Source: Norana najaformis
Taxonomy: Eukaryota > Annelida > Clitellata > Crassiclitellata > Hormogastridae
Direction of reading: 5' to 3'
Length of the DNA stretch: 64,000 nucleotides
Assembly (NCBI GenBank): GCA_964023275.1
Contig: OZ029923.1
Location: forward strand, 6,607,729 to 6,671,728
Shown: piece by piece, positions 1,108 to 64,000 of the stretch
Position numbering within the stretch: position 1 is the first letter of the stretch
Layout: each line of letters opens with the position of its first letter
Notes under the pieces: model-generated
The model's input: only the letters and a program-made list of their open reading frames with translations
Told to the model about the DNA's origin: nothing
Databases searched by the model: none
Position numbers and translations under genes: made by a program

Positions 1108-2352
1108 TAATAATTAAATAATTAGCAACTTCTAATGCGCCAGTGTCTAATGCACAAGGCATCAACCGATGGCACACCAAAACCAAGCCACAATCAAGTC
1201 GATATCCAGAACGTCAGTCCGCACGACAGAGAGGCAGCCTATGGTGGATAAGCAATTTGAAACAGGTAAGTTTTAAGTTGAGAACGAAATGACAGGAGCG
1301 ACTGAGCAGAACGAACAGACACAGGGAAGGAATTCCAAAATTTTGGTCCAGCAATCGAAAATGCTCGTTTACAAAGAACAGTGCTAGCCCAAGTTATGAT
1401 CAGAGAAAGACAATCAGATGACCTTGCAGAATAATGGTGTCTGGGGAATAAGGATTGATTTCAAGTATTGTGGTTGGCCATAGTTCAATGTTTTATAAAC
1501 TGTAAGTCCTAATTTGAAACAAATCCTTTGCTGAACAGGAAGCCAATGTAAAGATTTAAGTACAGGGGTTATATGCTCATATTTAGAAGTATTTGTTATG
1601 GCTCTAGCCAAGGAGTTCTGAACTCTTTGAAGTTTCTGCATGTTTGATCTAGTGATACCAACAAGAATGGAGTTACAATAGTCAAGATGACTGGAGACCA
1701 ATGCGTTAGCTAAGGATATTTTGGAAGACATGGGGACATAATGCCTAATTCTGCGTATGTCTCGAATATACATATATGATGACTTACAAATACCATTTAC
1801 ATAGTTTGTGAGGGACATGGTTGAATCAAAAACAACACCCAAGTCACGAGCAGTATCAGTCATCTCAATGAGTGAATCACCCAGTTTTACAGATTTAAGC
1901 CATTTGAATTTCTTAAGTTGCTGAGGAGTGCCAAGCAGTAGAAATTCAGTTTTTGAGGGGTTAAGGAGAAGTTTATTTGCTGCCATCCAAGACTGCAGCT
2001 CTTCAAAGGCATCAGACAACAGCTGCACAGACGAGTGACAAGTCAAACTGTCAAATGAGATGTAGATTTGGGAGTCATCAGCATAGAAATGATATCCCAG
2101 TGAATGATTGTCTAGCAGGGTACCTAGAGGTGTGGTGTATAATGTAAACAAAAGAGGACCAAGTACAGAACCCTGCGGAACGCCACAGGTCAACGAGGCA
2201 CTAGCTGAATAATGTCCATTTAAATATACAGATTGAGTGCGAGGGCTGAGGTAAGTAGCAAACCAGTGTAGGGCAGGACCAGAAACTCCAAATCAATGTT
2301 GAAGACGATGCAAAAGGAGAGAGTGGTCGACAGTATCAAAGCCAGCAGACAA
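1108..2352 (-). mobile_element. CR1/L2-like LINE fragment, 5'-truncated and dead
   Basis: The minus strand encodes the second half of a non-LTR reverse transcriptase. The motif-A remnant FDTVDH lies near 2335, GVPQGSVLGPLLF near 2180 and the catalytic FYADD near 2080. The block HWLPVQQRI lies near 1540, and AFSIAGPKFWNS leads to a stop at 1239. These motifs and this ending are typical of CR1/L2-clade LINEs. The frame is broken by a TGA just upstream of the GVPQGS block (near 2297) and by a frameshift near 1414, so the copy cannot be functional. The paralogous spacer at about 58650 lacks it, which gives clean borders with an AATT repeated at both ends as a possible short target duplication. 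Its 3' end is an AATTATT-rich tail at the low-coordinate side. The clade is assigned from motifs only. Confidence 0.85.
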
Positions 2353-3086
2353 ATTCTGATAACGTGTCAAATTATTTGTACAGCACTGATCCTTCTTAAA
2401 CCAGGAAGCAATCGTTAAGAGTGCTGCTGTTTCTACGAAAAGCTAACACTTAATAAAATAGGAATAATAGTTCCTGTTTGAGGCATAGATTTTAAGAGGA
2501 AGCTGGAAAGTATTGACTGTTGAGCATTCACAGTAATAATTTGCACTAGTTCTCTCACAGTCTTCTGCGCCGCTTTCATCCTTATTTTGTTCTGTTATGT
2601 CATGTTGTTTTGCTAAATGCAAATATAGATGTGCATGTTTTTCCATAGCGACCCTATGACCTTGACTCTGCTAACTTCTCAATGAATTCATAGGGTGAGA
2701 TCCTTTACCACCGCTTTCGGTTTGAATGGATACCGCATTATTTAATGTCTTCCTTATACGGACCGCCTGATGAACAATTTGAAACAATAAATTGTACACA
2801 GTTAATTATAAATTCATTTAAAGGGATTTCAGAAAAATAGAGTCATGGACGATAGAACTCCTTTCTAGTCAGATGAAGGCAGTTCACTTCCCTCTTTTAA
2901 TTTCTGTTGGGAATTAAATAAGCCATCAAACGGTATACATATATATATATCTAATTATTATAGTACTGCTGTTTGTAAACAAGTCTCCTGACATACATAA
3001 TTTGAAATAATTCAACTTAAGCGTGTCTTATGAAATTAATAAGCTACTTATTAAGTTAAATGATCGTCGTAACTGTAACAAACAGT
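2353..3086. other. 3' flank of H1
   Basis: Non-coding flank directly downstream of the H1 stop codon. It is collinear with 58660-59382 (H2) and with the shared flank of the B genes at 15590-16632, 36950-38232 and 43600-44682. Relative to B2, B3 and B4, a stretch containing the 16-bp TGCTTTGCTCCGAAAA repeat is missing around 2765. No AATAAA on the minus strand close to the stop was found. Confidence 0.5.
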
Positions 3087-6000
3087 TTATCTGAAGCCGA
3101 TGGAAAAGCCAAGGACATCAGGGATTCTGTTTGTTTGAAGGTAGCAACCACAGCCACCGAAATGCATCTCTCCGAACATGAAGTAACTGCTCGGCATTAC
3201 CCGACCCGATGGATTCGGGAGCAGGTAGGCAAATATGTTGTTGCAGAACGGTCCAGGCACGTGGTAGTTGGAGGAGGCAATTTCCCTGAAGTTCGGGAAC
3301 AACGTGATAAGGCTGTTGGGATTCCTATCGCAGTTTCTGAAAGTGTTTCGATGACCGTTTACCTGAATTCCCTGAACAGCGTTATTCGAAGCGTGCTTTA
3401 TGGGAAGAAAGCCCAAGAAGAGGTAAGGATTTCCTAGAATTCCCCGGTTAAGCGGACCAGAGTAATATTTAAAGTTGTTAAGGCCAAGTTTCAAAGGAAT
3501 CGACCTGAAAGTAAAGAAAATACACGGTATACAAAAGAATAGAGCGAAGATATACTACAATAACTGAAATAGGCCTATATATTTACTAAGTGTTAGTACA
3601 TTTGAAGCATCTATAGTGGAAGCGTCAAGATTATTTATTTGCATTCATAGTTTATGCCTAGAATGTCTTCTATTGGTCCGGCACACGATCTAAAGGCTAG
3701 TACTCCAATGCTCAACTATATAATCATAATGTATACTGGTTGTTGTCAATTTCTTTCTTTTTTTTTTGATCAACAAACGAATAATAAGAAAATATTAAAA
3801 TTCATTGAAATAGTACAGCGTCATTTTCGAAGGACCGTTAATAAACTATATCAATTAATAATAAGAAATAACTGAAGAAAGAAACTTTTGAGTTGAACTG
3901 AAATTCTGCAAACTTTTGCTGATGTTATTCGAGTTTGCCACGTTTTGGCTCGCTTCCTCTGGAGATACTGTACATGTACATACATTGTCCACGTCACATG
4001 CAGTACACTAGGGGCGGATTTTGGCTCACACCTCCATGAGTGGCAGATTGCGAAATGCATTTGCCTGTTAGCCCTGCGTCCGGGTTTCGAATCTCAGTTC
4101 GTCATGTGGCGAAACTGATGAATCGTTGTCACGGTGTTATATAATTGTAAAGAAACGGTGGTCCTTGGCTCTGACCTCTTTCAGTCTGTTTATGGCTCTT
4201 AGTGTTTCCTGTTTCCCGGCTTCAATGTGAACTTCTGAACTTTATAAGGAAGGCACTATTAAAACATAGTTGTATTGTATTGTTGTTGAATTGCTTTTGT
4301 CCTCTTTGCACTTCAAGCAAAGTATCCTTTAACACCAGGACCACGTGACCCTCTGCAAAATACTAACGTTGACAGAGGCGCGTTTGCAATTAACGACCGA
4401 TCAGCTTACCTCGCTTAACATTTGTTATTAACCTATGTAGACCAACGTGTAAACAGAAAGTATTTTGTTCATATTATTCGCGAGAAGGCGCCGGTGTCAA
4501 ATGTAACCTTCTTTAGCGCAAAGCATCTGCTTGCTAGTTCGGCAAATGTCCCTTATGGAGAGAATCCACTGTAGATCCCCGCTAGATACAGGTCATGAAA
4601 ACAATTGCCAAAACCTGTTCCGTCATTGATAACTTACTATTGTATATCCAGGACAAACGCACACACATCGCATTTCTCTCCATCTCCCTCTTCCTCTGCA
4701 CAGAAATTACATTATTGTCATATTATTCGCGTCCTGGCGGCGGTGTTATATAACTTTTGTAAATGTACTACACGGGCGTCAAAAGCTTTTATTATTTACT
4801 GTATTATGTAGATTTGACTGGATCGGATTAGATTAGAGCAGAGATAGGTTTTGTTCATTTAGAGCTTTATCAAATAAACCAAATGTTGTTCCTTGAAACC
4901 GTCGGGACTCTCTGATCATGCCCGGAATGAGATTTAAAAGGCATTCATAGTGCAAACGCAGCAGGTACTATGGTTTGGGATACACTTACGAATATTCTGG
5001 GAGTTGACGGAGCGCGGCATATGACTGTTCTCCGTTGGTCTTGCGAACGCGTAGGAGTACGGACGTCTTGTCAGTTATCATAACCGGCAGATCTTCATTC
5101 TTCAAAGCCGAAAGAGTCGACGGATTGAGGAAAGTGTAACCTCCGTGATTCAATCCCATCTCACAATAGACCTAAAATGTATGTGTTAAGAGCTACCTAA
5201 CAGACCTATAAAGGTGCGATTTTATAGGTGGGCCCTAATCCAGGTCATATGTACTAAACCATAACGTAATGCTTTCACAGTTAAGGCAATATAATCCTCT
5301 CAGATATCCTTCCTCTTAGATATCGCTTTACAAAGATTCGATAACAAGTACAATCAGTCATTACAATAATAATAATTATTATGTCTTTTGTCATTGTGGT
5401 ATCGTCCTTCTCCTCCTTCTCTTCCTCTTCCTCATGAAATTCATAACTATATAAGGAACCAATATTACGCTAATTAGCCTGCAAGTTTAAAGTGCGCGTT
5501 TGTGTAGGACATTTTCACGGCGTAACATTGATGAGTCGTGGTGTTGCGTGGACTTGTTTGGTCTGGTTGTCGAACTCCCGCACTAAGGCGGAACTCTTTC
5601 GTGACGTCATTGGGTTACTGACTTGTTGGATAACGTGCTAATTAATGTTTGCGATTACTGAGTTAGTTTGGCTGAGACGCAGTGATGCAGCGCTGATGTG
5701 TTATACTAGCTGGTGTTCTGCGCCTAGCATTTAAATAGCACTTTAGAAATTTATAATTACGATTATGATATGAACACGATTACATTTATATGATTTAATC
5801 AAACACGAACAATCGTTCTTTCGTGCAGTTATTAATCTGTCAACATATCTAAACATTTGTGAAGCTATACAAGATTTACACATATTACTTTCATATCTAA
5901 ACCCATAATCGACAGAAGGAAGTGGAAACATTTGTCGAAGACATAAATATGTAGCCAACACCGATTGGCTACACATTGATTTCACCTACAAATGTTTCAC

Positions 6001-7873
6001 CCTGGCGAAGTGACTGCATTGTGAGTAATGTATGTATATCCACCTCAACAAATCATTAACTATAGGTAATATCCACCTCAACAAATCATTAACTATGAGC
6101 CTGATTAGTTCAGAAGTCATGCTAGTCGATAACGAGCATTGCGGATTAGATAAAGATTAGATCGTATTGGATCGATTCGGATCGGATGTGATTTATCATA
6201 TCCGATACGATGAGATCTGATAAGACCAGATTCGATAAGATAGGATATACATACGCATATTGTGGCAGTTGTTTAAGAGTGGCACAGTACTGGGTGCTGT
6301 CTGATTTCCTGTAGCAGAATCGGAAACTGGTTTTATTGGTAAACATCAGTGCCACTTCTTCGCTTGTCAGTTGAGAGAGAAACGTTGGATTGATGAACGT
6401 GTATCCTCCTCCCTCTGTCTCCATATCACAGTAAACCTACAGTAATCCAGTCATATCAGCAGGGTAACAGGATCTGCATTTTGTAAAACTTATCTGATCT
6501 AAAGATTTCGGCAGAGCCATTGTCATCGTGAACAAGATCTCTTGTAACGAAAACACATTCTAAAATCATAATCCGTTGGAGATGCCCGGTTAAAATCCAA
6601 TATATAAGAGAAACCAGCGACCCAGCTGAATCGAGGAGAAAGCCAGGAATCAGGAAACCTACTGGCTGATCCCAAGCTTTGCAATTCACTACCAAGTCCA
6701 ATTCTATGTGGTCTGTCATTTCTTTAATGTCATTCAGATCGAAACTTAAGAGAAATCTATTTCAATTTGCTCATCCACCGTAGCCTGACTTTTGGAGTCA
6801 TTGTTTCCTCAGATTTCGATCAACTTCTCAGAAGGATATTGATTTTACTGCAGCTTTACTGAAGCGACTATTGATTCTTGCAATGTAAATTATGATAACG
6901 GCGCTATAGAAGTCATTAGAAGAGATTAGATTATTGGTTCGGATCGCAACCTCTAAGGAACTTCAGAATTTTTTCTTCCACTAAGATCAAAGCCCCAGTT
7001 TTAACAGGAAACATCAGGAGCTCTTAAAATCCGAAACTATTCAGTGTTCTCTTCACCATGGGTCTATTGGGAAGATTCTGTCCATGATGATATATGCCCA
7101 AATGGCTTCGCACAACGTTGAAACGTGTTTTACCACTTGAGAATCGTGTCTCTTTATTTCCACAATGATAATTACACACCTCTATGCCATTTCCGAACAC
7201 GGTTCCGACGATATACGTTCCACTTGGAAGAGCTGGTTTCTTCAGCTTCCTATACAGACAGGCGTTCTTTGCGTCGACACACTGTAAATCTGAAACATTA
7301 TGACCATTTAGATCTGATCTTAAGTTGAATAAAAGGACCAGCCTGAGTACTATTGCTTTCATAATGGGCACTCAAGGTATGGCTACACTGACTCATTTGT
7401 TTTTGGTATGAACTATAAGCCGAAACAGATAATAATAGGTCTATATAGTCCTCTTCGAATTATTAATGTTGTTATTATTATTATAACTTTTTATTAATAA
7501 TAATAATATTATTATTATCATTTGTAGTTTATTATAACCATATAAGTAAAGAACATCTTGAAAGCAGTGCCTTTTTCTTTTTTTCTTCTAAAAGACGCTA
7601 TTTGAATACCCATGAAAATAGACACATAAGGCAATAAAAGCAGCAACAACAAAGAAAGATACTCCTATAATAACACACATGTAAGGTAAGAGTAATATAA
7701 TTGAAAGATTATTTATACATCCACTGTTCCAGACAAAATCCATAATTACGTTCGTTCCGGCCTTAAAGTTACTAAGTTACAATTGCAGCAGATGAAGCAG
7801 ATATACCTGCTTTAATGGTTTCGAAGGAAACCGCAATTAACAGGATTCCTAAGAACCAACTCATTGTTGCCAT
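3087..7873 (-). CDS. H1: A/B hybrid secreted protein gene, two alternative exon 3 cassettes
   Basis: Minus-strand exons are 7807-7873 (signal peptide, starts MATMSWFLG), 7180-7289, 6255-6436 (A-type exon 3, VYCDMETEGGGYTF), 4990-5171 (B-type exon 3, VYCEMGLNHGGYTF) and 3087-3504 (B-type exon 4, TAA at 3087). All borders have GT-AG. Exon 2 ends in phase 0, both exon 3 versions start in phase 0, are 182 nt long and end in phase 2, and exon 4 accepts phase 2. Splicing exon 2 to either exon 3 gives an open frame of 258 residues; including both breaks it. The product should be secreted: signal peptide 1-22, a C-x6-C pair, a fibrinogen-like opening (PSGTY...IEVYCDM) and the FGGCGCY motif near 235-241. 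A exon 4 and B exons 1-2 are absent. Spliceability is inferred; no transcript evidence is available. Confidence 0.82.
4039..4232 (+). repeat. Possible tRNA-derived SINE fragment in H1 intron 3
   Basis: Between sequence shared with B2 and B4 (ending cctccatg and resuming at ttctgaactt) this copy holds a block absent there. It contains GGGTTTCGAATCTC, a fair match to a pol III B box. The same block is at 60334-60527 and, shortened, at 39178-39354. No convincing A box or terminal repeat was seen, so the SINE call is tentative. Confidence 0.35.
5683..5686. other. Recombination junction between B intron 2 and A intron 3
   Basis: Sequence on the low side (…gagacgcagtgat) follows B3 up to 40809. 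Sequence on the high side (tgatgcagcgct…) follows A3 from 23347. The two parents share only TGAT at the switch, so the fusion point is resolved to these four bases. The identical junction is at 61978-61981 in H2. Confidence 0.8.
7467..7527. repeat. Short ATT-rich microsatellite in H1 intron 1
   Basis: Interrupted ATT/AAT run at the position where A2, A3, A4 and A5 carry longer ATT arrays. The H2 copy is at about 63750-63822. Confidence 0.7.
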
Positions 7874-20660: not shown

Positions 20661-21684
20661 GATCGAACGGACTACTTTCTTGCAGGCCTACAAACTTTAA
20701 GACCAGTAAATGTATCCGTGATTTATACTTTCTTTGTGGCTATAAATTATTTTCTAGGCAATAATTCATGTCTATTTGAAGTGGCTTATCTGTCATACTC
20801 ATTAAACAAGATCGATAAATGTGTCAGTGATTTATACTTTCTTTGTAGCTATAAATTATTTTCTAGGCAATAATTCATGTCTATTTGAAGTGGCTTATCT
20901 GTCATACTCATTAAACAAGATCAATAAATGGGTCAGTGATTTACAAACATTATAAATTTATTCATATTGTCTAATTGTAGACGATACTGATGTTGATAAT
21001 GAACTGTATTCTCAGTTGCAAGGCTTAAACATTTATGGCGCCCTGGCTGAGTTTTATCGGCTGATAGCTATATAGTAGGCCAATATGTAGAAAAACAATA
21101 ATATTATCAAAATGACAGCATGGTTTATTGGACAGATAAATTAGCATCATTATTTCTGCATTTATTGAGCGCCACTATCCAATGACAATTCATCAATCAA
21201 TGGCGCTGAGCAGTTGAGTTAGGGACTTGCTCAATGTCCCTACGCTGGAACCGTCTCAGTGCGGACTCCAATACGTACTGTCCGTGTTACAAGCCGAGCG
21301 CTCTATTCAATCGGCCAATATTAAAGTCATTTCAAATCCATTACAGGTCTGTTCGATGATAAATTTGTGACTTTAAAATTCAAATGTCGTTTGAGTGTCT
21401 ATGTAGATTCTTGACTTATGATCAATTATATGTCAAGATTACATCTTATCTGACTAATATACAGCTTATCTGACTAATATAGCATCCACTTAATCATCAC
21501 ACAGTGACTCACTATACCCATAGAATATTCCACTAATTCGCTTTCTCGGTCGATAGTCCGAGGCTCAGAAATTCGCTGTCCGATCCAACACTTCTCTTAT
21601 GTTGTCCAGGTTCGGTCACGCTAGTTAGTCAGCAAGTTTAAAGCAAGCGTTTGTGTAGGAAATTTGCATTACGCACCATTGATG
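20661..21684. other. Spacer upstream of B2
   Basis: No gene seen. It includes a direct repeat of about 120 bp (20720-20935, containing gtggctataaattattttctagg and a second copy). A region at about 21160-21320 (cttgctcaatgtccctacgctggaacc... and gccgagcgct) resembles the tail of a SINE or LINE. The stretch is collinear with 49275-50180 upstream of B4, where the direct repeat has only one copy. Confidence 0.45.
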
Positions 21685-22120
21685 ACATGGCATACCGTTC
21701 CATATCATATGCCATACTGTTCCATATCACATGGCCTACTTCCATATCATATGGCATACCTTTCGATATCGTATGGAATACCGCTCGGTATCACATGGCA
21801 TTCCTTTCCATGTCAAATGGCATAAAGTTCCTAATCAAGTGGCATTCCGTTCCATATCATATGGCATACCGTTCCATATCATATGGCATAGAGTTACGTA
21901 TCATATGGCATATCGTTCCATATTATATGGTATGCCGTTCCATATCATATGACGTAACTTTCCATAGCATATGCCATAATGTTCCGAATCATATGGGATA
22001 CCGTTCGATATCACATGGCATACCATTCCATATCATACGACACACCGTTCCATATCATATGGCATACCTTTCCATATCATGTGGCATTCCGTTCCATATC
22101 ATGTGGCATACCGTTCCATA
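21685..22120. repeat. 22-bp minisatellite, about 20 units
   Basis: Tandem units of CCATATCATATGGCATACCG plus two bases, diverged between units. The open frames it creates (ISYGIPFHI-type repeats) reflect the repeat. The paralogous array at 50181-50594 lacks one unit. Confidence 0.9.
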
Positions 22121-22635
22121 TTATGCTTTATTACCTGGAGGTTTTAGATCTGCTTTATTTTGGCTTTGGACATATGTGTATGTGTAGATAGATTTTTTAT
22201 AACGTCGTCCTAGAACCTCTTTTATGGCCCCACCTCCAGGCTAACTGATGACGGGGTTGGTAAAAACAAGAATGCCTCTGTCGTCGCGCTCTCGCAAATG
22301 TAATACAGAACCAGACCAAATGAGTTCCACTCATGGCTTACAGTTAACTCAGTATTCAAAGTTTCTGTTCTGTGTTGTAATGAAGAACAGATTGGTGACA
22401 GTCTTACCTTGATCGCAGCTCACAATTTTGCCTAAATTCAGTCACTGAATAAAGATGGACTCAGTGATTAATTAATAATTTGCAATGTGTTTTTTAGGTT
22501 TTCTTAATTCTAGTAGCGATTAAGGTTGAACTGGAAGATTATTACAAAATGCGTTAAGTAAAATTTATTTCAGCAATAAATATCTGTAATATCATCAGAC
22601 TCGCCATTCATTCGCCAGTGAAACTCAGAGAAAAA
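22121..22635. other. 3' flank of A3
   Basis: 22128-22440 matches the 3' flank block of A2, A4 and A5, then switches to unrelated sequence. A minus-strand AATAAA lies at 22564-22569, about 70 nt past the A3 stop, and could be its polyadenylation signal; the other A copies lack it there. Confidence 0.45.
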
Positions 22636-29169
<6,534 letters not shown>

Positions 29170-31813: not shown

Positions 31814-33335
31814 CTACTTAAATCCGATGGCTACTCCAACTACATTATGAATGCGATTGCTTTGAGTGTAACAGCCACAACCGCCAAAGTGAAACTCAGC
31901 GAACATGAAGAAATATTCGGGGATGAGGCGATTGGTCGGCTGTATCAAGGAATTCGTAAAGATCTGGTTGCAGAAGGGAAAGCTGGTTCCGATGAGATAC
32001 GTTGATGGCGTGAATCCGGAGTAGTTTGGGAAGAGCGTGATATAGCTGTTTGGATTCGAGTCACAGTTGGTGAAGCTTAGGCTGACACCGTTCACTTGCA
32101 TTCCTTGAACGTTCCGGTTGGATGCAGCGCTCGACGGTAGAAATCCGAAGTACAGGTAGGGCTTACCGAGAATGTTCAGGTTTACCGGATTCGTGTAATC
32201 GACGTTTTCACTCAGTCCGACTTTCAATGGAATTGTCCTAAGTGTTATACATTCATAAATGCCTTAAATTTCACATAAAAATATAAAGACTAATAGCTAG
32301 CACGCTGTCCAATATTAATTTCCTCATGCGCTTCTATCACTCCTCAAGCTTTGCATTCAAAATTAGAGTTCAATCTTTTCAAGAGATCTTACCCTAATTC
32401 ATCCAATCCGCCTCCTTTTCATCTTTCTCAAACTATATATCTTCTACCGTGTGCTTCTCTGTCTCCCTTCCTCTCTGGTCTTTTTGCAACCAAGTACTTT
32501 CTATGTTTTTTCTCGACAACCTTTCTGATTTGATGCAGCATTCCTGTATCACATTAGTTGGAGTCCTGAGCTTAGTTTATGAAAACGAGCTTTAGGAATG
32601 TAGATGTGAACTTTGCGATTTCGCTATGAACACGATTACAGTAATATGAACTGATTACACATTTACGTTCGTACGACGGTACGCTGGTTCTTCTGTTCAT
32701 TTACCAGACTTTTAACATATCTGGAAGTTTTTTGCGGTTCTACAAATTTTGTGCATTCGAGTTTCAAATGGAAACCAAGTATTGACGGGCGAAGTGCGAA
32801 CATTTGCCGCTAAAATCAGTTAGAAACCAACGCCGATGATAATTTCAACAATGCATTAACTACAAGGCCTAATTAGTTGAGAGGTGGTGTTTGTCGAAGG
32901 CTAGCATAATGAGTTTTGCAGATTTAATTAAATTAGGTTATATCAAACCGGATGGGTTAGGATTGGATACATCGTAGCGAATAGAATCCAGTGAGGTAAG
33001 GTTAGATTCAGGATTAGATTGAGAATTAGATTATATCACACCAGATTGGAGTAGATTAGATATACATACGTGTATTGCGGTAATTGTTTAAGGATGGCAC
33101 AGTACTGGGTGCTGTCGGATTTCCTGTAGCAGAATCGGAAACTGGTTTTATTGGTAAACATCAGAGCCACTTCTTCGCTTGTCAGTTGAGAGAGAAACGT
33201 TGGATTGACGTACGTGTAGCCCCCTCCGTCCGTCTCCATATCACAGTAAACCTACGGTAATGCAGTCACATCAGCAGAGTATCAGAATCTGCCTTGTGTA
33301 TATCTTATAATTATGATATGATTTCTGCAGCACCG
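31319..33335. repeat. Tract identical to 51386-53402
   Basis: About 2 kb, offset 20,067, covering A4 exon 4, intron 3 and exon 3. I saw no difference in the stretches compared by eye, while sequence on both sides differs at several bases per 100. This is the pattern of gene conversion or a very recent local duplication. Confidence 0.7.
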
Positions 33336-36420: not shown

Positions 36421-37552
36421 CACATAGAAGCGTAGAAGCACATATAGAAGCGTAGTAGTAGCTAGATATAGGCCTGTAATTATATCACGCACAGAGCCTG
36501 AGTATAGTAAGATGAATGATAATTAAGCTCCACCGAGACCATCGTCTGAAACAATTCGCTTTTGAAAAGTGCGTGTAAATCATACAGCGATTTAAATAGG
36601 CCTACTTTTACTGCGTACTTGAAAATAACGCAGATACATAAGCACCTGTTTTGCTCCTCATCTCCAACTGGCTTAGGTTTACAACAGAACAAGTGTGGGC
36701 ATAAACGAAGATCCCGACAGCGCCTTTGTGGGGGGCTATATTAAGTGTCCTGATACATACGTATACATACATACGAAGGCCCTATATCAAGTATATAGAT
36801 AACTAACTGTTTAACTAACTAAATAGCCAGCTAACTAACTAACTTTGCGATGTATATATGTATACATATATCTTCTTCGTAATCAGGACGCTACAAAGTG
36901 TCTATGTTTCTGCGAATTTCACCAGATTTGAATTCTGATAACGTATCAAATTATTTGCACAACACTGATCCTTCTTAAACCAGGAAGCAATCTTTAAGAG
37001 TGCTGCTGTTTATACGAAAAGCTAACATTGATAAAATAGGAGTAATAGCTCGTGTCAGAGACATAGCTTTTAAGAGGAAGCTGGAAAGTATTGACTATTG
37101 AGCATTCACAGTAATTTGCAGTGGTTCTAACGCAGTCTTCTGTGCCGCTTACATCCTTGTTTCGTTCTGTTATGTTATGTTGTTATGCTTAATGCAAATG
37201 TAGAAGTACATGTTTTTTCAATAGCGACCGACCCTTTACCAAACGCTTTGCGTTTGAATGGCTGCCTTCCTATTTAATGTCTTCCTTGTATGGACGGCGC
37301 TGGCACGGGATTCATGACGAAGGTGAAACACGATCTAAGTTCTAGTTCTATAGGTAAACTTTGTGCAGCTGACTATTAACGGGGCGCATTTTTAATTATT
37401 CACATTTTATAAAGGTAAATTTGGGATATATTCTGGTATACCAAATATAAAATTGTATAAATTTTTGGATTGATTCTCAAAATTGCATCACAATACATTT
37501 TGCGATTGTCGAAGCGTAGTAAGTCTGTAATTGTTATATGGCGCTTTATAAA
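35203..37552. other. Spacer between A4 and B3
   Basis: No gene seen. A degenerate repeat of about 21 bp lies near 35450-35530 (variants of aaaagggccgctagggcc). There is a pure TA run of about 52 bp at 36367-36418 and CTAA runs at about 36795-36843. The stretch is collinear with 13888-16190. Confidence 0.5.
36367..36418. repeat. TA dinucleotide microsatellite
   Basis: About 26 TA units. The equivalent positions near 690, 15050 and 58215 hold only 6-9 units. Confidence 0.92.
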
Positions 37553-37850
37553 TGCTTTGCCCGAAAATGCTTTGCTCCGAAAATGCTTTTCTCCGAAAAT
37601 GATTTGCTTCGAAAATGCTTTGCTCCGAAAATGATATGCTCCGAAAATGCTTTGTTCCGAAAATGCTTTGCTCCGAAAATGCTTTGCTCCGAAAATGCTT
37701 TTCTCCGAAAATGATATGCTCCGAAAATGCTTTGTTCCGAAAATGCTTTGCTCCAAAAATGCTTTGCTCCGAAAATGCTTTGTTCCGAAAATGCTATGCT
37801 CCGAAAATGCTTTTCTCCGAGAATGATTTGCTCCGAAAATGCTTTGCTCC
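37553..37850. repeat. 16-bp minisatellite, about 18-19 units, 3' of B3
   Basis: Tandem TGCTTTGCTCCGAAAA with single-base variants (ttgttcc, ttttctcc, gatttgc). The same site has two units at B2 (about 16195) and three at B4 (about 44240), and is deleted at H1 and H2. The repetitive open frames on both strands follow from the repeat. Confidence 0.93.
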
Positions 37851-38232
37851 GGTTAATCGAAACTTAGTAAGAACGTAACTAGAACAACTTGCAGAACCGA
37901 TTCATACACTGATGAACAATTGAAAACAATAAATTTTAGGTTTTCATATTCAGAAGTAAATTATGAATTCATTTAAATGGATTTCAAGAAAATAGAGGCA
38001 TGAACGATAGAACTCCTTTCTCGTCAGATGAAGGCAGTTTCCTCTTTTAGTTTTTGTGATGAATTAAATAAGCCATCAAACGGTCTGCATATATATCTAA
38101 TTATTATAGTACTGCTGCTTGTAAACAAGTCTCCAGAGATACAAAATTTGAAATAATTCAACTTAACCGTGTCTTATGAAATTAATAAGCTACTTATTAA
38201 GTTAAATGATCGTCGTAACTGTAACAAACAGT
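37851..38232. other. 3' flank of B3
   Basis: Shared B-gene 3' flank; no feature seen beyond AT-rich runs. Confidence 0.45.
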
Positions 38233-41200
38233 TTATCTGAAGCCGATGGAAAAGCCAAGGACATCAGGGATTCTGTTTGTTTGAAGGTAGCAACCACAGC
38301 CACCGAAATGCATCTCTCCGAACATGAAGTAACTGCTCGGCATTACCCGACCGGATGGATTCGGGAGCAGGTAGGCAAATATGTTGTTGCAGAACGGTAG
38401 AGGCACGTGGTAGTTGGAGAAGGCAATTTCCCTGAAGTTCGGGAACAACGTGATAAGGCTGTTGGGATTCCTATCGCAGTTTCTGAAAGTGTTTCTATGA
38501 CCGTTTACCTGAATTCCCTGAACAGCGTTATTCGAAGCGTGCTTTATGGGAAGAAAGCCCAAGAAGAGATAAGGATTTCCTAGAATTCCCCGGTTAAGCG
38601 GACCAGAGTAATCATTAAAGTTGTTTAGGCCAAGTTTCAAAGGAATCGACCTGAAATTAAAGAAAATACACGGTATACAAAAGAAGAAAGCGAAGATATA
38701 ATAAAATAACTGAATTAGGCCTATATATTTACTAAGTGTTAGTACATTTGAAGCATCTATAGTGGAAGCGTCAAGATTATTTATTTGCATTCATAGTTTA
38801 TGCTTAGAATGTCTTCTGTTGGTCCGGCACACGATCTAAAGGCTAGTACTCCAATGCTCAACTATAGCAGCATAATGTATATTGGTTGTTGTCAATTTTT
38901 TTTTTTTGATCAATAAACGAATAATAAAAAAATATTAAAATTCATTGAAACAGTGCAGCGTCATTTTTGAAGGACCGTTAATAAACTATATCAATTAATA
39001 ATAAGAAATAACTGAAGAAAGAAATTTTTGAGTTGAATTGAAATTCTGCAAACTTTTGCTGATGTTATTCGAGTTTGCCACATTTTGGCTCGCTTTTTCT
39101 GGAGATACTGTACATGTGCAAACATTGTCCACATCACATGCAGTACATTAGGCCGGATTTTGGCTCACAGCTCCATGCGAAATGCATTTGCATGTTAGGG
39201 TCCGGGCTTAGAATCTCAGTTCTTCATGTGGCGAAACTGATGATTCGTTGTCACGGTGTTATATAATTGTAAAGAAACGGTTGTCCATGACTCTGACCTC
39301 TTTCAGTCTGTTTATGGCTCTTAATGTTTCCTGTTTCCCGGCTCCAATGTGAACTTCTGAACTTTGTAAGGAAGGCACTTTTAAAATATAGTTGTATTGT
39401 ATTGTTGTTGAATTGCTTTTGTCCTCTTTACACTTCAACAAAGGTATCCTTTAACACCAGGACCACGTGACCCTCTGCAAAATACTAACGTTGACAGAGG
39501 CACGTGTGCAATTAACGACCGATTAGCTAACCTCGCTTAACATTTGTTATTAACCTATGTAGACCAACATGTAAACAGAAAGTACGTTATTTATATTATT
39601 CGCGAGATGGCGCCGGCGTTATATGTAACCTTTGTTAGCGCAAAGCATCTGCGTGCTAGTTCGGCAAATGTCCCTTATGGAGAGAATCCACTGTAGATCC
39701 CCGCTAGATACAGGTCATGAAAACAATTGCCAAAACCTGCTCCGTCATCGATAACTTACTATTGTATATCCAGGACAAACGCACACACATCGCATTTCTC
39801 TCCATCTCCCTCTTCCTCTGCACAGAAATTACATTATTTTCATATTATTCGCGTCCTGGCGGCGGTGTTATATAACTTTTGTAAATGTACTACATGGGCG
39901 TCAAAAGCTTTTATTATTTACTGTATTATGTAGATTTGACTGGATCGGATTAGATTAGAGCAGAGATAGGTGTTGTTCAATTAGAGCTTTTTCAAATAAA
40001 CCAATTGTTGTTCCTTGAAACCGTCGGAACTCTTTGATCATGCCCGGAACGAGATTGCAAAGGCGTCCATAGTGCAGACGCAGCAGGTGTTATGGTTTGG
40101 GATACACTTACGCATATTCTGGGAGTTGACGGAGCGTGGCATATGGCTGTTCTCCGTTGGTTTTTGCGAACGCGTAGAAGTACGGTCGTCTTGTCAGTTA
40201 TCATAACCGACAGATCTTCATCCGTCAAAGCCGAAAGAGCCGATGGATTGAGGAAAGTGTAACCTCCGTGATTCAATCCCATCTCACAATAGACCTAAAA
40301 TGTATGTGTTAAGAGCTATCTAACAGATCTATAAAGGTGCGATTTTATAAGTAGGCCCTAATCCAGGTCATATGTACTAAACCATAACATAATGCTTTCA
40401 CAGTTAAGGCAGAATAATCCTCTCAGACATTCTTCCTCTTAGATATCGCTTTACAAAGATTCGATAACAAGTACAATCAATCATTACAAAAATAATTATT
40501 ATTATGTCTTTTGTCATTGTGGTATTGTTCTTCTCCTCCTTCTCTTCCTCCCCTTATGAAATTCATAACTAAGGAACCAATATTACGCTAATTAGCCTGC
40601 AAGTTTAAAGTGCGCGTTTGTGTAGGAAATTTTCACGGCGTAACATTGATGAGTCGTGGTGTTGCTGACTTGTTTGGTCTGGTTGTCGGGCTCCCGCACT
40701 AAGGCGGAACTCTTTCGTGACGTCATTGGGTTACTGACTTGTTGGATAACGTGCTAATTAGGCCTACGTGTTTGCGATTACTGGGTTAGTTTAGCTGAGA
40801 CGCAGTGATCACGTGCCACGAATTGCTGGATGCGTCTAACTACCATACATTGAGATCTTGCTATGACGTTGGTGTGATGCTGGCGCGTATTTTATGACGC
40901 TATCGCATATTTTATCACGTGGGCACATGCGCGGGAACGACGCTCTTACGATGCGCTGCCCGGTCTATACCAGTCTGAACTGGTCTGCTGTGGTGGTGGA
41001 AAATAACCTATAAAATGCAGTCGCAAATGCATTGTAGACAAAAACGAAAAAGATTTTGTGGCGGAGTCTGTCTTCTGCTCATGCGATAGTTTGATACATT
41101 GATAAGTTCGCGTGTTTTGAAATTATTTATCGACATATTATGTACTGTCGTGATTGAACTGTTCGTCGTCTAATAGACCTAATAATATATGCACGAAAAT

Positions 41201-41919
41201 CAAAGACTGCCTCTCTTGTTTCGAATTATCGCTATATTCCATATCGGGCGAGTCGGCCGTTCAAAGCCCGATCGATTGACAACTTCGAAAGGTTGTCCGA
41301 ACATGAGCAACAACCAACAACAATAATAAAATTATCAGCAGGAATAATAGTACCTGCAACTAGATCGCTGTTGATCACTAAAGATGTCAGTGGAACAGGA
41401 TAAGTTCAGAGCTGTATTGATATTGGTAGGTAATTTATACCTCGATGATCGCTCCGGTTTCCGTTTTCAATTGATAAACTCCACTGGGCGTCGTAGGATC
41501 GTCTATTTGCAGTTGCTTGCACGAATGTCTGTATGCAGCATTTACATTCATTATTAATCGTAATCGTACTCGTAAGCTCGAGATTTCTACAGGGTCCAAC
41601 GAAAGCTAAGTCGCAGGAACCAGTTTATTCACAGGCGCTCAGTCAAAACAAGTGGATAGACAGGTAGGGTTCGGTTACAGGTGAAGATTCTAGAGTGAGG
41701 CAGCTAAACAGTCAAATGGCTATGGTGGATGGTGATGCTTGGAACTGAACCGGAAAATGAGATAATGGGAAGAGGAAGAGTCAGGATAGGATCTGTGAAT
41801 AAGTCTTTTCATTTTTAAGTGAAGGACCTACGCAGAGATTGCAAGAGGCGAAAAACATAAAATACACGAGAAATTGTGACAAATAGTAGAGGAAGAAAGA
41901 TATGTCTGATTACTACAGA

Positions 41920-42405
41920 ATCCCAGATAAAATAGATCGGTGGCAAATTGAGAGGTGATTCCCTATTGAGAACTATTTTCGAAGGCAGAATGTTGGGAAG
42001 CAAAACAAGAGGAAGACCAAACACAGATGCTGCTGGACTGAATGATAAATGGTGGATACAAGGAGACCAAATGAGACCAAGCATCGCGAAGACTGACATC
42101 CATTGCATGCATTAACCAGCAGACAATTTGAAAAAGAAGAAAAAGAAAAAGGCAGTAAATTTAGACTCTATGTATGTATTCATGTATCTAAGATTTGTAT
42201 AGCGCATTTTCATGTCCTCTCAAAGGCTGTGAAAATAGCTGTTTGAGTAATCTAAACAGATGTGCCTTAACATATGATCATAGTGTTCCACAGGTCTCTG
42301 CTCAAATATTCTCCACCCACTTAACATAAGTTAGATAAGCATGTGTACCGCGCTTTTAGACATGCTTTAAAAGGCGCTATATAAGTATCTTGATTTTTAT
42401 ACACA
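41920..42405 (+). mobile_element. LINE 3'-end relic in B3 intron 1
   Basis: Relative of the 19780-20185 relic. The plus strand reads LLRTIFEGRMLGSKTRGRPN before a stop. It is followed by a tail ending in aaaggcgctatataagtatc, a common 3' end of LINEs and their SINEs, and then simple repeats. Confidence 0.42.
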
Positions 42406-42495
42406 AATATGCACGCATGCATGAATGCATGTATGTACACATATTAGGGCCTATACATATATACACTCAATGAAAGAAACTGATAAGTATGTGTA

Positions 42496-42554
42496 TGTTT
42501 ACATACATACTTACATACAGACATGCTTACATATTTACATGCTTGCATACATAC
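42496..42554. repeat. Short CATA repeat in B3 intron 1
   Basis: A few interrupted CATA units next to the exon 1 donor, compared with about 275 bp in B2 and 840 bp in B4. Confidence 0.7.
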
Positions 42555-42743
42555 CTGCAGTCGTGCCCTGTAACTAGCATGGCGATCAGGAAAATAAACA
42601 ACGAACGGGAAACCATTTCATATGTTTTGTTGGAAGTTCGTCAAAAGCGCCTTGAAGAATCCGAAAGAAATTGTAGCCACCAGTGTAGAGTAGTCGCTGC
42701 CTTGACTTCAGTCGCAAAGACGTTTCATATTGCTATCCGCTCT

Positions 42744-49274: not shown

Positions 49275-50180
49275 GATCGAACGGAATACTTTCTTGTAGG
49301 CCTACAAACTTCAAGACCAATAAATGTATCCGTGATTTATACTTTCTTTGTGGCTATAAATTATTTTCTAGGCAATAATTCATGTCAATGTGAAGTGGCT
49401 TATCTGTCATACTCATTAAACAAGATCGATAAATGGGTCAGTGATTTACAAACATTATAAATTTATTCTTACTACTTATTGTAGACGATACTGATGTTGA
49501 TAATGAACTGTATTCTCAGTTGCAAGGCTTAAACATTTATGGCGCCCTGGCTGAGTTTTATCGGCTGATAGTAGGCCTATATGTAGAAAAACAATAATAT
49601 TATCAAAATGACAGCATGGTTAATTGGACAGATAAATTAGCATCATTATTTCTGCATTTATTTAGCGCCACTATCCAATGACAATTCATCAATCAATGGC
49701 GCTGAACAGTTGAGTTAAGGACTTGCTCAAAGTCCCTACGCTGGAACCGTCTCAGTGCGGACTCCAATCCGTACTGTCCGTGTTACAAGCCGACCGCTGT
49801 ATTCAATCGGCCAATATTAAAGTCATTTCAAATTCATTACAGGTCTGTTCGATGATAAATTTGTGACTTTAAAATTCAAATGTCGTTTGAGTGTTCGTGT
49901 GGATTCTTGACTTATGATCAATAATTTGTCAAGATTACATCTTATCTGACTAATATACAGCTTACCTGACTAATATAGCATCCACTTAATCATCACACAG
50001 TGACTCACTATACCCATACAATATTCCACTAATTCGCTTTCTGGGTCGATAGTCCGAGGCACAGAAATTCGCTGTCCGATCCACCACTTCTCTTATGTTG
50101 TCCAGGTTCGGTCACGCTAATTAGTCAGCAAGTTTAAAGCAAGCGTTTGTGTAGCAAATTTGCATTACGCACCATTGATG
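49275..50180. other. Spacer upstream of B4
   Basis: No gene seen. Collinear with 20661-21684. The stretch at about 49660-49815 again resembles a SINE/LINE tail. Confidence 0.45.
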
Positions 50181-50594
50181 ACATGGCATACCGTTCCATA
50201 TCATATGCCATACTGTTCCATATCACATGGCCTACTTCCATATCATATGGCATACCTTTCAATATTGTATGGAATGCCGCTCGGTATCACATGGCATTCC
50301 TTTCCATGTCAAATGGCATAAAGTTCCTAATCAAGTGGCATACCGTTCCATATCATATGGCATTGAGTTACGTATCATATGGCATATCGTTCCATATTAT
50401 ATGGTATACCGTTCCATATCATATGACGTAACTTTCCATAGCATATGCCATAATGTTCCGAATCATATGGGATACCGTTCGATATCACATGGCATACCAT
50501 TCCATATCATACGACACACCGTTCCATATCATATGGCATCCCTTTCCATATCATGTGGCATTCCGTTCCATATCATGTGGCATACCGTTCCCTA
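50181..50594. repeat. 22-bp minisatellite, about 19 units
   Basis: Paralogue of 21685-22120 with one 22-bp unit fewer (near 50338). Confidence 0.9.
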
Positions 50595-59382: not shown

Positions 59383-62300
59383 TTATCTGAAGCCGATGGA
59401 AAAGCCAAGGACATCAGGGATTCTGTTTGTTTGAAGGTAGCAACCACAGCCACCGAAATGCATCTCTCCGAACATGAAGTAACTGCTCGGCATTACCCGA
59501 CCCGATGGATTCGGGAGCAGGTAGGCAAATATGTTGTTGCAGAACGGTCCAGGCACGTGGTAGTTGGAGGAGGCAATTTCCCTGAAGTTCGGGAACAACG
59601 TGATAAGGCTGTTGGGATTCCTATCGCAGTTTCTGAAAGTGTTTCGATGACCGTTCACCTGAATTCCCTGAATAGCGTTATTCGAAGCGTGCTTTATGGG
59701 AAGAAAGCCCAAGAAGAGGTAAGGATTTCCTAGAATTCCCCGGTTAAGCGGACCAGAGTAATATTTAAAGTTGTTAAGGCCAAGTTTCAAAGGAATCGAC
59801 CTGAAAGTAAAGAAAATACACGGTATACAAAAGAATAGAGCGAAGATATACTACAATAACTGAAATAGGCCTATATATTTACTAAGTGTTAGTACATTTG
59901 AAGCATCTATAGTGGAAGCGTCAAGATTATTTATTTGCATTCATAGTTTATGCCTAGAATGTCTTCTATTGGTCCGGCACACGATCTAAAGGCTAGTACT
60001 CCAATGCTCAACTATATAATCATAATGTATACTGGTTGTTGTCAATTTCTTTCTTTTTTTTTGATCAACAAACGAATAATAAGAAAATATTAAAATTCAT
60101 TGAAATAGTACAGCGTCATTTTCGAAGGACCGTTAATAAACTATATCAATTAATAATAAGAAATAACTGAAGAAAGAAACTTTTGAGTTGAACTGAAATT
60201 CTGCAAACTTTTGCTGATGTTATTCGAGTTTGCCACGTTTTGGCTCGCTTCCTCTGGAGATACTGTACATGTACATACATTGTCCACGTCACATGCAGTA
60301 CACTAGGGGCGGATTTTGGCTCACACCTCCATGAGTGGCAGATTGCGAAATGCATTTGCCTGTTAGCCCTGCGTCCGGGTTTCGAATCTCAGTTCGTCAT
60401 GTGGCGAAACTGATGAATCGTTGTCACGGTGTTATATAATTGTAAAGAAACGGTGGTCCTTGGCTCTGACCTCTTTCAGTCTGTTTATGGCTCTTAGTGT
60501 TTCCTGTTTCCCGGCTTCAATGTGAACTTCTGAACTTTATAAGGAAGGCACTATTAAAACATAGTTGTATTGTATTGTTGTTGAATTGCTTTTGTCCTCT
60601 TTGCACTTCAAGCAAAGTATCCTTTAACACCAGGACCACGTGACCCTCTGCAAAATACTAACGTTGACAGAGGCGCGTTTGCAATTAACGACCGATCAGC
60701 TTACCTCGCTTAACATTTGTTATTAACCTATGTAGACCAACGTGTAAACAGAAAGTATTTTGTTCATATTATTCGCGAGAAGGCGCCGGTGTCAAATGTA
60801 ACCTTCTTTAGCGCAAAGCATCTGCTTGCTAGTTCGGCAAATGTCCCTTATGGAGAGAATCCACTGTAGATCCCCGCTAGATACAGGTCATGAAAACAAT
60901 TGCCAAAACCTGTTCCGTCATTGATAACTTACTATTGTATATCCAGGACAAACGCACACACATCGCATTTCTCTCCATCTCCCTCTTCCTCTGCACAGAA
61001 ATTACATTATTGTCATATTATTCGCGTCCTGGCGGCGGTGTTATATAACTTTTGTAAATGTACTACACGGGCGTCAAAAGCTTTTATTATTTACTGTATT
61101 ATGTAGATTTGACTGGATCGGATTAGATTAGAGCAGAGATAGGTTTTGTTCATTTAGAGCTTTATCAAATAAACCAAATGTTGTTCCTTGAAACCGTCGG
61201 GACTCTCTGATCATGCCCGGAATGAGATTTAAAAGGCATTCATAGTGCAAACGCAGCAGGTACTATGGTTTGGGATACACTTACGAATATTCCGGGAGTT
61301 GACGGAGCGCGGCATATGACTGTTCTCCGTTGGTCTTGCGAACGCGTAGGAGTACGGACGTCTTGTCAGTTATCATAACCGACAGATCTTCGTCCGTCAA
61401 AGCGGAAAGAGCCGATGGATTGAGGAAAGTGTAACCTCCGTGATTTAATCCCATCTCACAATAGACCTAAAATGTATGTGTTAAGAGCTACCTAACAGAC
61501 CTATAAAGGTGCGATTTTATAGGTGGGCCCTAATCCAGGTCACGTGTACTAAACCATAACGTAATGCTTTCACAGTTAAGGCAATATAATCCTCTCAGAT
61601 ATCCTTCCTCTTAGATATCGCTTTACAAAGATTCGATAACAAGTACAATCAGTCATTACAATAATAATAATTATTATGTCTTTTGTCATTGTGGTATCGT
61701 CCTTCTCCTCCTTCTCTTCCTCTTCCTCATGAAATTCATAACTATATAAGGAACCAATATTACGCTAATTAGCCTGCAAGTTTAAAGTGCGCGTTTGTGT
61801 AGGACATTTTCACGGCGTAACATTGATGAGTCGTGGTGTTGCGTGGACTTGTTTGGTCTGGTTGTCGAACTCCCGCACTAAGGCGGAACTCTTTCGTGAC
61901 GTCATTGGGTTACTGACTTGTTGGATAACGTGCTAATTAATGTTTGCGATTACTGAGTTAGTTTGGCTGAGACGCAGTGATGCAGCGCTGATGTGTTATA
62001 CTAGCTGGTGTTCTGCGCCTAGCATTTAAATAGCACTTTAGAAATTTATAATTACGATTATGATATGAACACGATTACATTTAATCGATTTAATCAAACA
62101 CGAACAATCGTTCTTTCGTGCAGTTATTAATCTGTCAACATATCTAAACATTTGTGAAGCTATACAAGTTTTACACATATTACTTTCATATCTAAACCCA
62201 TAATCGACAGAAGGAAGTGGAAACATTTGTCGAAGACATAAATATGTAGCCAACACCGATTGGCTACACATTGATTTCACCTACAAATGTTTCACCCTGG

Positions 62301-63584
62301 CGAAGTGACTGCATTGTGAGTAATGTATGTATATCCACCTCAACAAATCATTAACTATAGGTAATATCCACCTCAACAAATCATTAACTATGAGCCTGAT
62401 TAGTTCAGAAGTCATGCTAGTCGATAACGAGCATTGCGGATTAGATAAAGATTAGATCGTATTGGATCGATTCGGATCGGATGTGATTTATCATATCCGA
62501 TACGATGAGATCTGATAAGACCAGATTCGATAAGAACGGATATACATACGCATATTGTGGCAGTTGTTTAAGAGTGGCACAGTACTGGGTGCTGTCTGAT
62601 TTCCTGTAGCAGAATCGGAAACTGGTTTTATTGGTAAACATCAGTGCCACTTCTTCGCTTGTCAGTTGAGAGAGAAACGTTGGATTGATGAACGTGTATC
62701 CTCCTCCCTCTGTCTCCATATCACAGTAAACCTACAGTAATCCAGTCATATCAGCAGGGTAACAGGATCTGCATTTTGTAAAACTTATCTGATCTAAAGA
62801 TTTCGGCAGAGCCATTGTCATCGTGAACAAGATCTCTTGTAACGAAAACACATTCTAAAATCCTAATCCGTTGGAGATGCCCGGTTAAAATCCAATATAT
62901 AAGAGAAACCAGCGACCCAGCTGAATCGAGGAGAAAGCCAGGAATCAGGAAACCTACTGGCTGATCCCAAGCTTTGCAATTCACTACCAAGTCCAATTCT
63001 ATGTGGTCTGTCATTTCTTAAATGTCATTCAGATCGAAACTTAAGAGAAATCTATTTCAATTTGCTCATCCATCGTAGCCTGACTTTTGGAGTCATTGTT
63101 TCCTCAGATTTCGATCAACTTCTCAGAAGGATATTGATTTTACTGCAGCTTTACTGAAGCGACTATTGATTCCTGCAAAGTAAATTATGATAACGGCGCT
63201 ATAGAAGTCATTAGAAGAGATTAGATTATTGACTCTGATCGCAACCTCTAAGGAACTTCAGAATTTTTTCTTCCACTAAGATCAAAACGCCAGTTTTAAC
63301 AGGAAACATCAGGAGCTCTTAAAATCCGAAACTGTCCAGTGTTCTCTTCACCATGGGTCTATTGGGAAAATTCTGTCCATGATGATATATGCCCAAATGG
63401 CTTCGCACAACGTTGAGACATGTTTTACCACTTGAGAATCGTGTCTCTTTATTTCCACAATGATAATTACACACCTCTATGCCATTTCCGAACACGGTTC
63501 CGACGATATACGTTCCACTTGGAGTAGCTGGTTTCTTCAGCTTCCTATACAGACAGGCGTTCTTTGCGTCGACACACTGTAAAT
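59383..63584 (-). CDS. H2: second A/B hybrid gene, first exon beyond the window
   Basis: Minus-strand exons are 63475-63584 (exon 2), 62550-62731 (A-type exon 3), 61285-61466 (B-type exon 3) and 59383-59800 (B-type exon 4, TAA). By the constant offset of 56,295 from H1, the signal exon should lie at about 64102-64168, outside the window. Every splice site and phase matches H1, so the two 182-nt exon 3 cassettes are again mutually exclusive. Differences from H1 include KKPATPSGTY in exon 2, and in B-type exon 3 NPSALSALTDEDLS, where H1 has NPSTLSALKNEDLP; the H2 version matches B3 there. No lesion was seen in the visible part. Confidence 0.8.
60334..60527 (+). repeat. Possible tRNA-derived SINE fragment in H2 intron 3
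   Basis: Copy of 4039-4232, with the same B-box-like GGGTTTCGAATCTC. Confidence 0.35.
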
Positions 63585-64000
63585 CTGAAACATTATGACC
63601 ATTTAGATCTGATCTTAAGTTGAATAAAAGGACCAGCCTGATTATTATTGCTTTCATAATGGACACTCAAGGTATGGCTACACTGACTCATTTGTTTTTG
63701 GTATGAACTATAAGCCGAAACAGATAATAATAGGTCTATATAGTCCTCTTCGAATTATTAATATTGTTATTATTATTATAACTTTTTATTAAAAATAATA
63801 ATAATATTATTATTATTATTATCATTTGTAGTTTATTATAACCATATAAGTAAAGAACATCTTGAAAGCAGTGCCTTTTTCTTTTTTTCTTCTAAAAGAC
63901 GCTATTTGAATACCCATGAAAATAGACACATAAGGCAATAAAAGCAGCAACAACAAACAAAGATACTCCTATAATAAAACACATGTAAGGTAAGAGTAAT
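63585..64000. other. Start of H2 intron 1
   Basis: Intron sequence with a short ATT run (about 63750-63822), matching 7290-7705 of H1. The window ends inside this intron. Confidence 0.6.

What the first reader, a model, noticed from the sequence alone, without database searches (positions are those of the whole stretch)
4990..6436. Hybrid gene H1 carries two mutually exclusive, frame-matched exon 3 cassettes
A-type exon 3 (6255-6436) and B-type exon 3 (4990-5171) are both exactly 182 nt, enter in phase 0 and leave in phase 2. Exon 2 ends in phase 0 and exon 4 accepts phase 2, so using either cassette gives a 258-residue protein and using both or none breaks the frame. A fusion of two paralogues has thus created a ready-made alternative-splicing switch between a Cys-paired (FCY...YC) and an unpaired version.
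Basis: partly seen in the sequence, partly recalled or inferred. Interest (0 to 1): 0.86.

Follow-up and report, generated by a model that had tools for sequence, protein, structure and literature searches.

The report
Fused gene carrying two alternative exons
In one animal's tandem array of lectin-like genes, a deletion fused two related neighbours into a gene that carries both parents' versions of one exon; only transcripts using exactly one version can make full-length protein, but whether the animal regulates that choice is unknown.

Summary
The anatomy is real. H1 (minus strand) has exon 1 (67 nt), exon 2 (110), A3 (182), B3 (182) and exon 4 (418). Either cassette alone gives 258 residues; both give a stop at codon 127, neither at codon 68. 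The frame match is inherited: 182 nt is the family's standard exon 3. H1 is a true hybrid: it switches from an A*-gene intron 3 to a B*-gene intron 2 at one junction with 4 bp of microhomology, TGAT, at 5683-5686. A second hybrid, H2, 56 kb away, has the same junction, so the fusion happened once and was copied; the own-genome search matched the whole A3-B3 stretch at these two places only. Both cassettes are open with AG/GT sites in both hybrids. A3 is unchanged between H1, H2 and A29 (0/182); B3 differs 9/182 between H1 and H2 while its flanking introns differ 2/511 and 0/1484, which suggests exon-sized gene conversion. I found no steric or U2/U12 exclusion device; RNA pairing is undecided. 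I read this as passive frame-and-decay exclusion at most; a regulated switch is untested, since no RNA of this species was available.

The parts
7807..7873 (-). H1 exon 1 (A-type, signal-peptide-like start), 67 nt
   Evidence: identical to A29 exon 1 (0/67)
7180..7289 (-). H1 exon 2 (A-type), 110 nt, ends in phase 0
6255..6436 (-). H1 A-type exon 3 cassette, 182 nt, with the FCY...YC pair
   Evidence: 0/182 to H2 and A29
5683..5686 (-). fusion junction, 4-bp microhomology TGAT: A* intron 3 on the high-coordinate side, B* intron 2 on the low side
4990..5171 (-). H1 B-type exon 3 cassette, 182 nt
   Evidence: 9/182 different from H2
3087..3504 (-). H1 exon 4 (B-type), 418 nt with stop, accepts phase 2
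63475..63584 (-). H2 exon 2 (A-type); H2 exon 1 lies just outside the window
62550..62731 (-). H2 A-type exon 3 cassette, 182 nt
61978..61981 (-). H2 fusion junction, same TGAT
61285..61466 (-). H2 B-type exon 3 cassette, 182 nt
59383..59800 (-). H2 exon 4 (B-type)
22636..29169 (-). A29 (A69 in array numbering): intact A*-type gene, representative of the A-side parent
38233..42616 (-). B41 (B82 in array numbering): B*-type gene, representative of the B-side parent; its exon 3 is 183 nt and frame-broken

Best explanation
H1 is a young hybrid gene. SHOWN: in a tandem array of two related gene types (A and B), a join with 4 bp of microhomology connects intron 3 of an A* gene to intron 2 of a B* gene, leaving A exons 1-3 followed by B exons 3-4; two copies, H1 and H2, carry the same junction. 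SHOWN: exactly one exon 3 must be used for a full-length protein. INFERRED: the gene runs from the A* promoter. Both cassettes carry the splice sites of genes in which they are the only exon 3, so part of the transcript probably carries both exons and is lost to early termination and nonsense-mediated decay; the productive share uses A3 or B3 by competition. Exclusivity is then passive (reading frame plus decay), not a built-in switch. A3 is held constant; B3 exchanges sequence with other B genes by exon-sized gene conversion.
For: Junction: H1 and H2 match B41/B138 up to the TGAT and A29/A32 after it, and the parents are unrelated to each other across it. Book-keeping: the 164 kb read holds 11 A3 but 9 A-type exons 4, and 9 B3 but 7 B-type exons 1 and 2; two A3-B3 hybrids account for both gaps. 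Both hybrids lie between A genes, as expected if an A*-B-B* run collapsed to A*/B*. Frame arithmetic. No steric or U12 device: A3-B3 intron 1,083 nt; 20 of 20 donors examined begin GT and none looks U12-like, 15 of 15 acceptors end AG. A3: 0/182 between H1 and A29 where introns 2 and 3 differ 32/1263 (Fisher p 0.027). B3: 9/182 between H1 and H2 against 2/1995 in the flanking introns (Fisher p 8e-9).
Against: No RNA of this species was available, so expression, double inclusion and decay are all inferred. Survival of both frames is weak evidence of use: in a neutral simulation both frames survived in 52%, 21% and 6% of runs at 0.8%, 2% and 4% divergence. A3's donor in H1/H2 scores low (-1.8) on a human matrix recalled from memory, against 1.5 for B3, so A3 may often be skipped, making B3 the main form rather than double inclusion. 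H1's B3 shows 5-8 nonsynonymous and only 2-3.5 synonymous differences to five intact B genes, which looks relaxed and favours the passenger rival. Some inverted repeats could loop out one cassette; not compared with shuffles. The A3 constancy could also be recent conversion.
Confidence: 0.55

Rival explanations
1. One cassette is a passenger: the hybrid makes essentially one protein (A3-B4 or B3-B4), and the other exon 3 is skipped and drifting.
For: H1's B3 differs from five intact B genes by 5-8 nonsynonymous against 2-3.5 synonymous changes, while A3 is unchanged; between H1 and B41 B3 differs as much as introns do (11/182 against 103/1965, Fisher p 0.60) and more than exon 4 (9/418, p 0.023). 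A3's weak donor (recalled matrix) would point the other way, to A3 as the skipped exon. Two of three B*-type genes already have a frame-broken exon 3.
Against: Both cassettes are open with AG/GT sites in both hybrids. H2's B3 shows the opposite pattern to H1's: 6-7 synonymous against 3-5 nonsynonymous. B41's own exon 3 is broken, so part of that divergence lies on its side.
Confidence: 0.2
2. A regulated mutually exclusive switch between a Cys-paired and an unpaired protein.
For: Frame geometry; both cassettes intact in two copies; Cys pair confined to the A type and placed on two successive predicted strands of a relative's model; some inverted repeats could loop out one cassette.
Against: No steric or U2/U12 device; the two cassettes come with unrelated introns, so no duplicated selector site is given by the fusion itself; no isoform-like pair among 107 homologues, though none of these is from this species or known to have two exons 3.
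Confidence: 0.13
3. A dead or nearly dead gene: both exons are spliced in constitutively, every transcript is out of frame, and the open frames are just young or refreshed by conversion.
For: Both cassettes keep the splice sites of genes in which they are the only exon 3; neutral survival of both frames is not improbable; conversion from intact B genes can keep B3 open.
Against: Exon 4 of the hybrids differs from B41 less than the introns do (9/418 against 103/1965), and A3 is unchanged.
Confidence: 0.09
4. Assembly artefact: A and B gene pieces mis-joined.
For: The array is highly repetitive.
Against: The same junction occurs twice in copies that differ elsewhere (80 differing columns including 10 gap columns over the 5.35 kb), and array counts balance.
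Confidence: 0.03

Closest known systems
Mutually exclusive exons with lengths not divisible by three (human atlas, PMC5740500; passages seen)
   Same: Two neighbouring homologous exons of equal length and phase; joint inclusion breaks the frame.
   Different: There the pairs are validated by splice-junction reads; here no reads exist and the two exons came from two genes. In that atlas exon-joining reads were found in only 83 (22%) of 377 such clusters, so frame alone is mostly not taken to be what excludes.
Oyster CgiLBP5 exon 3 pair (PMC5399370; passages seen)
   [quoted passage not shown] an invertebrate gene family with local duplicates.
   Different: Transcript variants are reported there and the origin is left open; here the junction is resolved but no transcript is known.
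Hybrid genes in tandem immune families: chicken BG (PMC4046983; passages seen)
   Same: Same-orientation tandem genes joined by recombination or deletion; the 5' partner determines expression there.
   Different: The passages I saw describe no duplicated alternative cassette.
Fibrinogen-related, intelectin and fibrillar-collagen C-propeptide folds
   Same: Top structural matches of two relatives' models: angiopoietin, ficolin and intelectin for the B-type P0001, ficolin, procollagen C-propeptide and intelectin-type lectins for the A-type P0004; the domain opens with VYC(D/E)M and a G-rich GYTF stretch.

Membership tests
Mutually exclusive exon pair | Adjacent homologous exons of the same length and reading frame | tested here: met
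   182 nt each, same phases, about 48% identical in protein
Mutually exclusive exon pair | Joint inclusion or joint skipping gives no full-length protein | tested here: met
   126 aa and 67 aa products
Mutually exclusive exon pair | Splice-junction reads from each exon that bypass the other | not testable with these tools
   No RNA reads of this species available
Mutually exclusive exon pair | Steric exclusion or U2/U12 mismatch (known mechanisms, not required of members) | tested here: not met
   A3-B3 intron 1,083 nt; donors GT and not U12-like, acceptors AG
Mutually exclusive exon pair | Competing RNA pairings (docking and selector sites; known mechanism, not required of members) | tested here: inconclusive
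   21 inverted-repeat pairs in 3505-7179; two arms each pair with two sites, but both partner sites lie in one and the same intron; a few pairs would loop out A3 or B3. No shuffle control
Hybrid gene of a tandem array | One junction, each side assigned to a different paralogue class | tested here: met
Hybrid gene of a tandem array | Homologous (unequal crossing-over) junction; one of two accepted routes, deletion being the other | tested here: not met
   Parents share only 4 bp at the junction
Fibrinogen_C (Pfam PF00147) | Score above the gathering cut-off | tested here: not met
   A version 16.8 bits against 22; B version no family at E 1 or less
Fibrinogen-related / intelectin-like fold | Clear structural match over the domain | tested here: inconclusive

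The most novel reading that the evidence does not exclude
A gene-fusion-born splicing switch: one deletion between tandem paralogues created, readable to the base and in two living copies, a working pair of mutually exclusive exons that toggles a secreted lectin-like protein between a disulphide-stapled and an unstapled hairpin, with the A cassette held constant and the B cassette re-diversified by exon-sized gene conversion.
Probability: 0.13. Interest if true: 0.68.

Novelty: new member of a known kind. Interest (0 to 1): 0.4.

Why it matters
Mutually exclusive exons are usually explained by duplicating an exon inside one gene. Here two paralogous exons, already diverged to about 48% protein identity, were brought together in one step, and the junction, representatives of both parent classes and two descendants can all be read. 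It is a natural test of whether frame and decay alone can hold such a pair until regulation evolves. The contrast between a constant A3 and a mosaic B3, in copies whose neighbouring introns are nearly identical, is a second testable point about exon-sized gene conversion.

Tried and rejected
Chance as the source of the frame match: rejected, it is inherited. Homologous crossing-over at the junction: rejected, only 4 bp shared. Isoform-like pairs (same N and C parts, different exon 3 part) among the 107 fetched homologues: 36 pairs passed the filter and the 24 printed show none; P0024/P0025 share the exon 4 part (97%) but differ in the exon 3 part, where P0025 does not look like the family. Rfam on the window: 0 matches at gathering. 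tRNA scan with the bacterial setting: 0.

Literature: nine searches. Five were aimed at alternative exons born by gene fusion: three found no paper; the other two listed 20 of 29 and 10 of 10 papers, in whose titles and abstract starts I saw no such case; of these I opened only PMC5399370. This covers that library and those words only. Papers: passages seen of PMC9741552, PMC5740500, PMC5399370 and PMC4046983; PMC9013439 held none of my terms; outline and abstract of PMC6071210; all others as listings only. No match to the terms fusion or unequal in PMC9741552 and PMC9013439.

Limits: splice-site scores use a human frequency table recalled from memory; that the source label lgn means Logan assemblies is recalled. 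Genome-wide statements rest on one DNA query (46 matches, 40 of 393 first-look candidates scored) and one exon 4 protein query (24 of 24 scored); exon 3 protein queries did not complete. The deletion size (about 10-11 kb) is inferred from present spacing (6,714 + 3,877 bp), as no intact A*-B-B* run remains in the part read. The organism was not identified: the genome is held without a name.
Full report
WHAT WAS CHECKED. H1 lies on the minus strand of an animal-like chromosome: the window is C11:6607729-6671728 of an unnamed 608 Mb genome in 17 contigs. Exons are 67, 110, 182, 182 and 418 nt with AG before and GT after at the internal boundaries. A3 alone or B3 alone gives 258 residues, both give 126, neither gives 67. 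Names below: A29, A35, A56, A13, B41, B47, B19 are named by window position in kb; in array numbering they are A69, A75, A96, A53, B82, B89, B60.

THE FRAME MATCH IS INHERITED. The region is a tandem array of one family. In 164 kb around H1 (window plus ten fetched stretches) I find 11 A-type and 9 B-type exons 3. All 11 A-type copies and 7 of 9 B-type copies are 182 nt with AG and GT; the other two (B41/B82 and B138) are 183 nt and frame-broken. The exon 4 query on the whole genome scored 24 of 24 candidates: 18 in this array, 3 on C8, 3 on C10. The six genes outside the array have one exon 3 per exon 4 in the stretches read, with the same start and end phase (one further exon 4 fragment lies on C10). 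Equal length and phase are therefore the family's standard exon 3. H1 and H2 are the only genes read here with two.

HOW IT AROSE. H1 matches the B*-type gene B41 from 2767 to 5686 (92.9%) and the A*-type gene A29 from 5683 to 7535 (94.5%). At the junction the parents are unrelated on each other's side and share only TGAT. H2 has the identical junction; H1 and H2 are 98.5% alike over 5,354 columns. The array's counts balance with two hybrids: 11 A3 against 9 A-type exons 4, and 9 B3 against 7 B-type exons 1 and 7 B-type exons 2. Both hybrids sit between A genes, which fits collapse of an A*-B-B* run into A*/B*; present-day spacings add up to about 10.6 kb lost. The order and size are inference. 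The short shared motif points to end-joining or replication slippage rather than homologous crossing-over.

WHAT HAS HAPPENED SINCE. Between H1 and H2: end of intron 1 7/406, exon 2 2/111, intron 2 15/743, A3 0/182, A-side of the joined intron 6/568, B-side 2/511, B3 9/182, intron 3 0/1484, exon 4 2/418, 3' flank 26/687. B3 is an island (9/182 against 2/1995, Fisher p 8e-9). That is hard to get by mutation alone and is expected if exon-sized tracts come in from other B genes, whose introns (28-42% different for B19 and B47) are too diverged to be carried along. In line with this, H1 shares two neighbouring derived bases (in the codons for Lys24 and Asn25) only with B144 among the 9 B3 copies, about 97 kb away, and another position with B60 and B89. 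Lys-Asn at this place also occurs in the distant homologue P0008, so parallel change is not excluded. A3, in contrast, is identical in H1, H2 and A29 and differs from A32 only at 2 silent sites. Over all pairs the nonsynonymous to synonymous ratio is 0.15 for A3 (11 copies), 0.38 for B3 (7 intact copies) and 0.36 for B-type exon 4 (9 copies). Against my reading: H1's B3 looks relaxed (5-8 nonsynonymous, 2-3.5 synonymous differences to five intact B genes), whereas H2's does not (3-5 and 6-7).

WHAT THE PROTEIN IS. Relatives exist as short contigs with uninterrupted frames across all exons: P0004 is A-type (70% to my A-type query), P0001-P0003 are B-type (67-74%). Named members in the lists are from bivalves and corals. 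Models of P0004 (mean pLDDT 89.6) and P0001 (91.3) are confident. Best solved matches are fibrinogen-related domains, intelectin-type lectins and procollagen C-propeptides, at modest scores; Pfam does not file either H1 version. In P0004 the two extra cysteines (residues 100 and 110) fall on two successive predicted strands (96-103 and 108-114), so a disulphide across a hairpin is plausible; I had no coordinates to measure it. The pair occurs in 11 of 11 array A3 copies, 0 of 9 B3 copies and 1 of 107 homologues.

IS IT A SWITCH? Steric exclusion: not met, 1,083 nt between the cassettes. U2/U12 mismatch: not met. Frame and decay: met. [quoted passage not shown] Competing RNA pairing, as in PMC6071210 (abstract seen), is undecided: 21 inverted-repeat pairs in the region, some able to loop out one cassette, none a clear docking set, no shuffle control. 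My reading is passive exclusion with an unknown productive fraction. The neutral simulation (52%, 21%, 6% survival of both frames at 0.8%, 2%, 4% divergence) warns that open frames in so young a gene prove little.

VERDICT. A real, cleanly resolved hybrid gene with two intact alternative cassettes, present twice; a candidate pair of mutually exclusive exons; the switch is unproven.

Noticed in passing
window 25430-28807 (-): A 1125-codon stop-to-stop frame with a reverse transcriptase domain (RVT_1, E 2.2e-13), GC-rich (54% in 26-28 kb), sits in intron 1 of A29: a retrotransposon insertion that lengthens that intron to about 4.2 kb.
   Followed up: partly
window 1414-2292 (-): Fragment of a second reverse transcriptase (RVT_1, E 8e-16) just downstream of H1; the matching flank of H2 lacks it (H1 1108 and 2352 are adjacent in H2).
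   Followed up: partly
window 31817-33251 and 51884-53318 (-): A35 and A56 are identical over exon 3, intron 3 and exon 4 (0/182, 0/832 with 66 gap columns in the three-way alignment, 0/421) yet 10.6% different in exon 2: a recent conversion or duplication tract.
   Followed up: no
window 40112-40294 (-) and locus L016 (B138): Two of three B*-type genes have a frame-broken 183-nt exon 3 but an open exon 4.
   Followed up: partly
window 5925-5998: A near-palindromic element (34-nt arms, 82% complementary) in the A3-B3 intron, with matching stretches in A29 and H2; looks like a small inverted-repeat transposon.
   Followed up: no
window 2352-7696 against 58648-64000: Several H1-H2 differences are adjacent doublets or triplets (for example 5789-5791, 6241-6242, 5248-5249); cause unknown.
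   Followed up: no
window from 48263; 21652-22193; 50148-50689; 37508-37923: Long short-period tandem repeats between array genes (steps of 8-12, 22, 22 and 16 nt).
   Followed up: no
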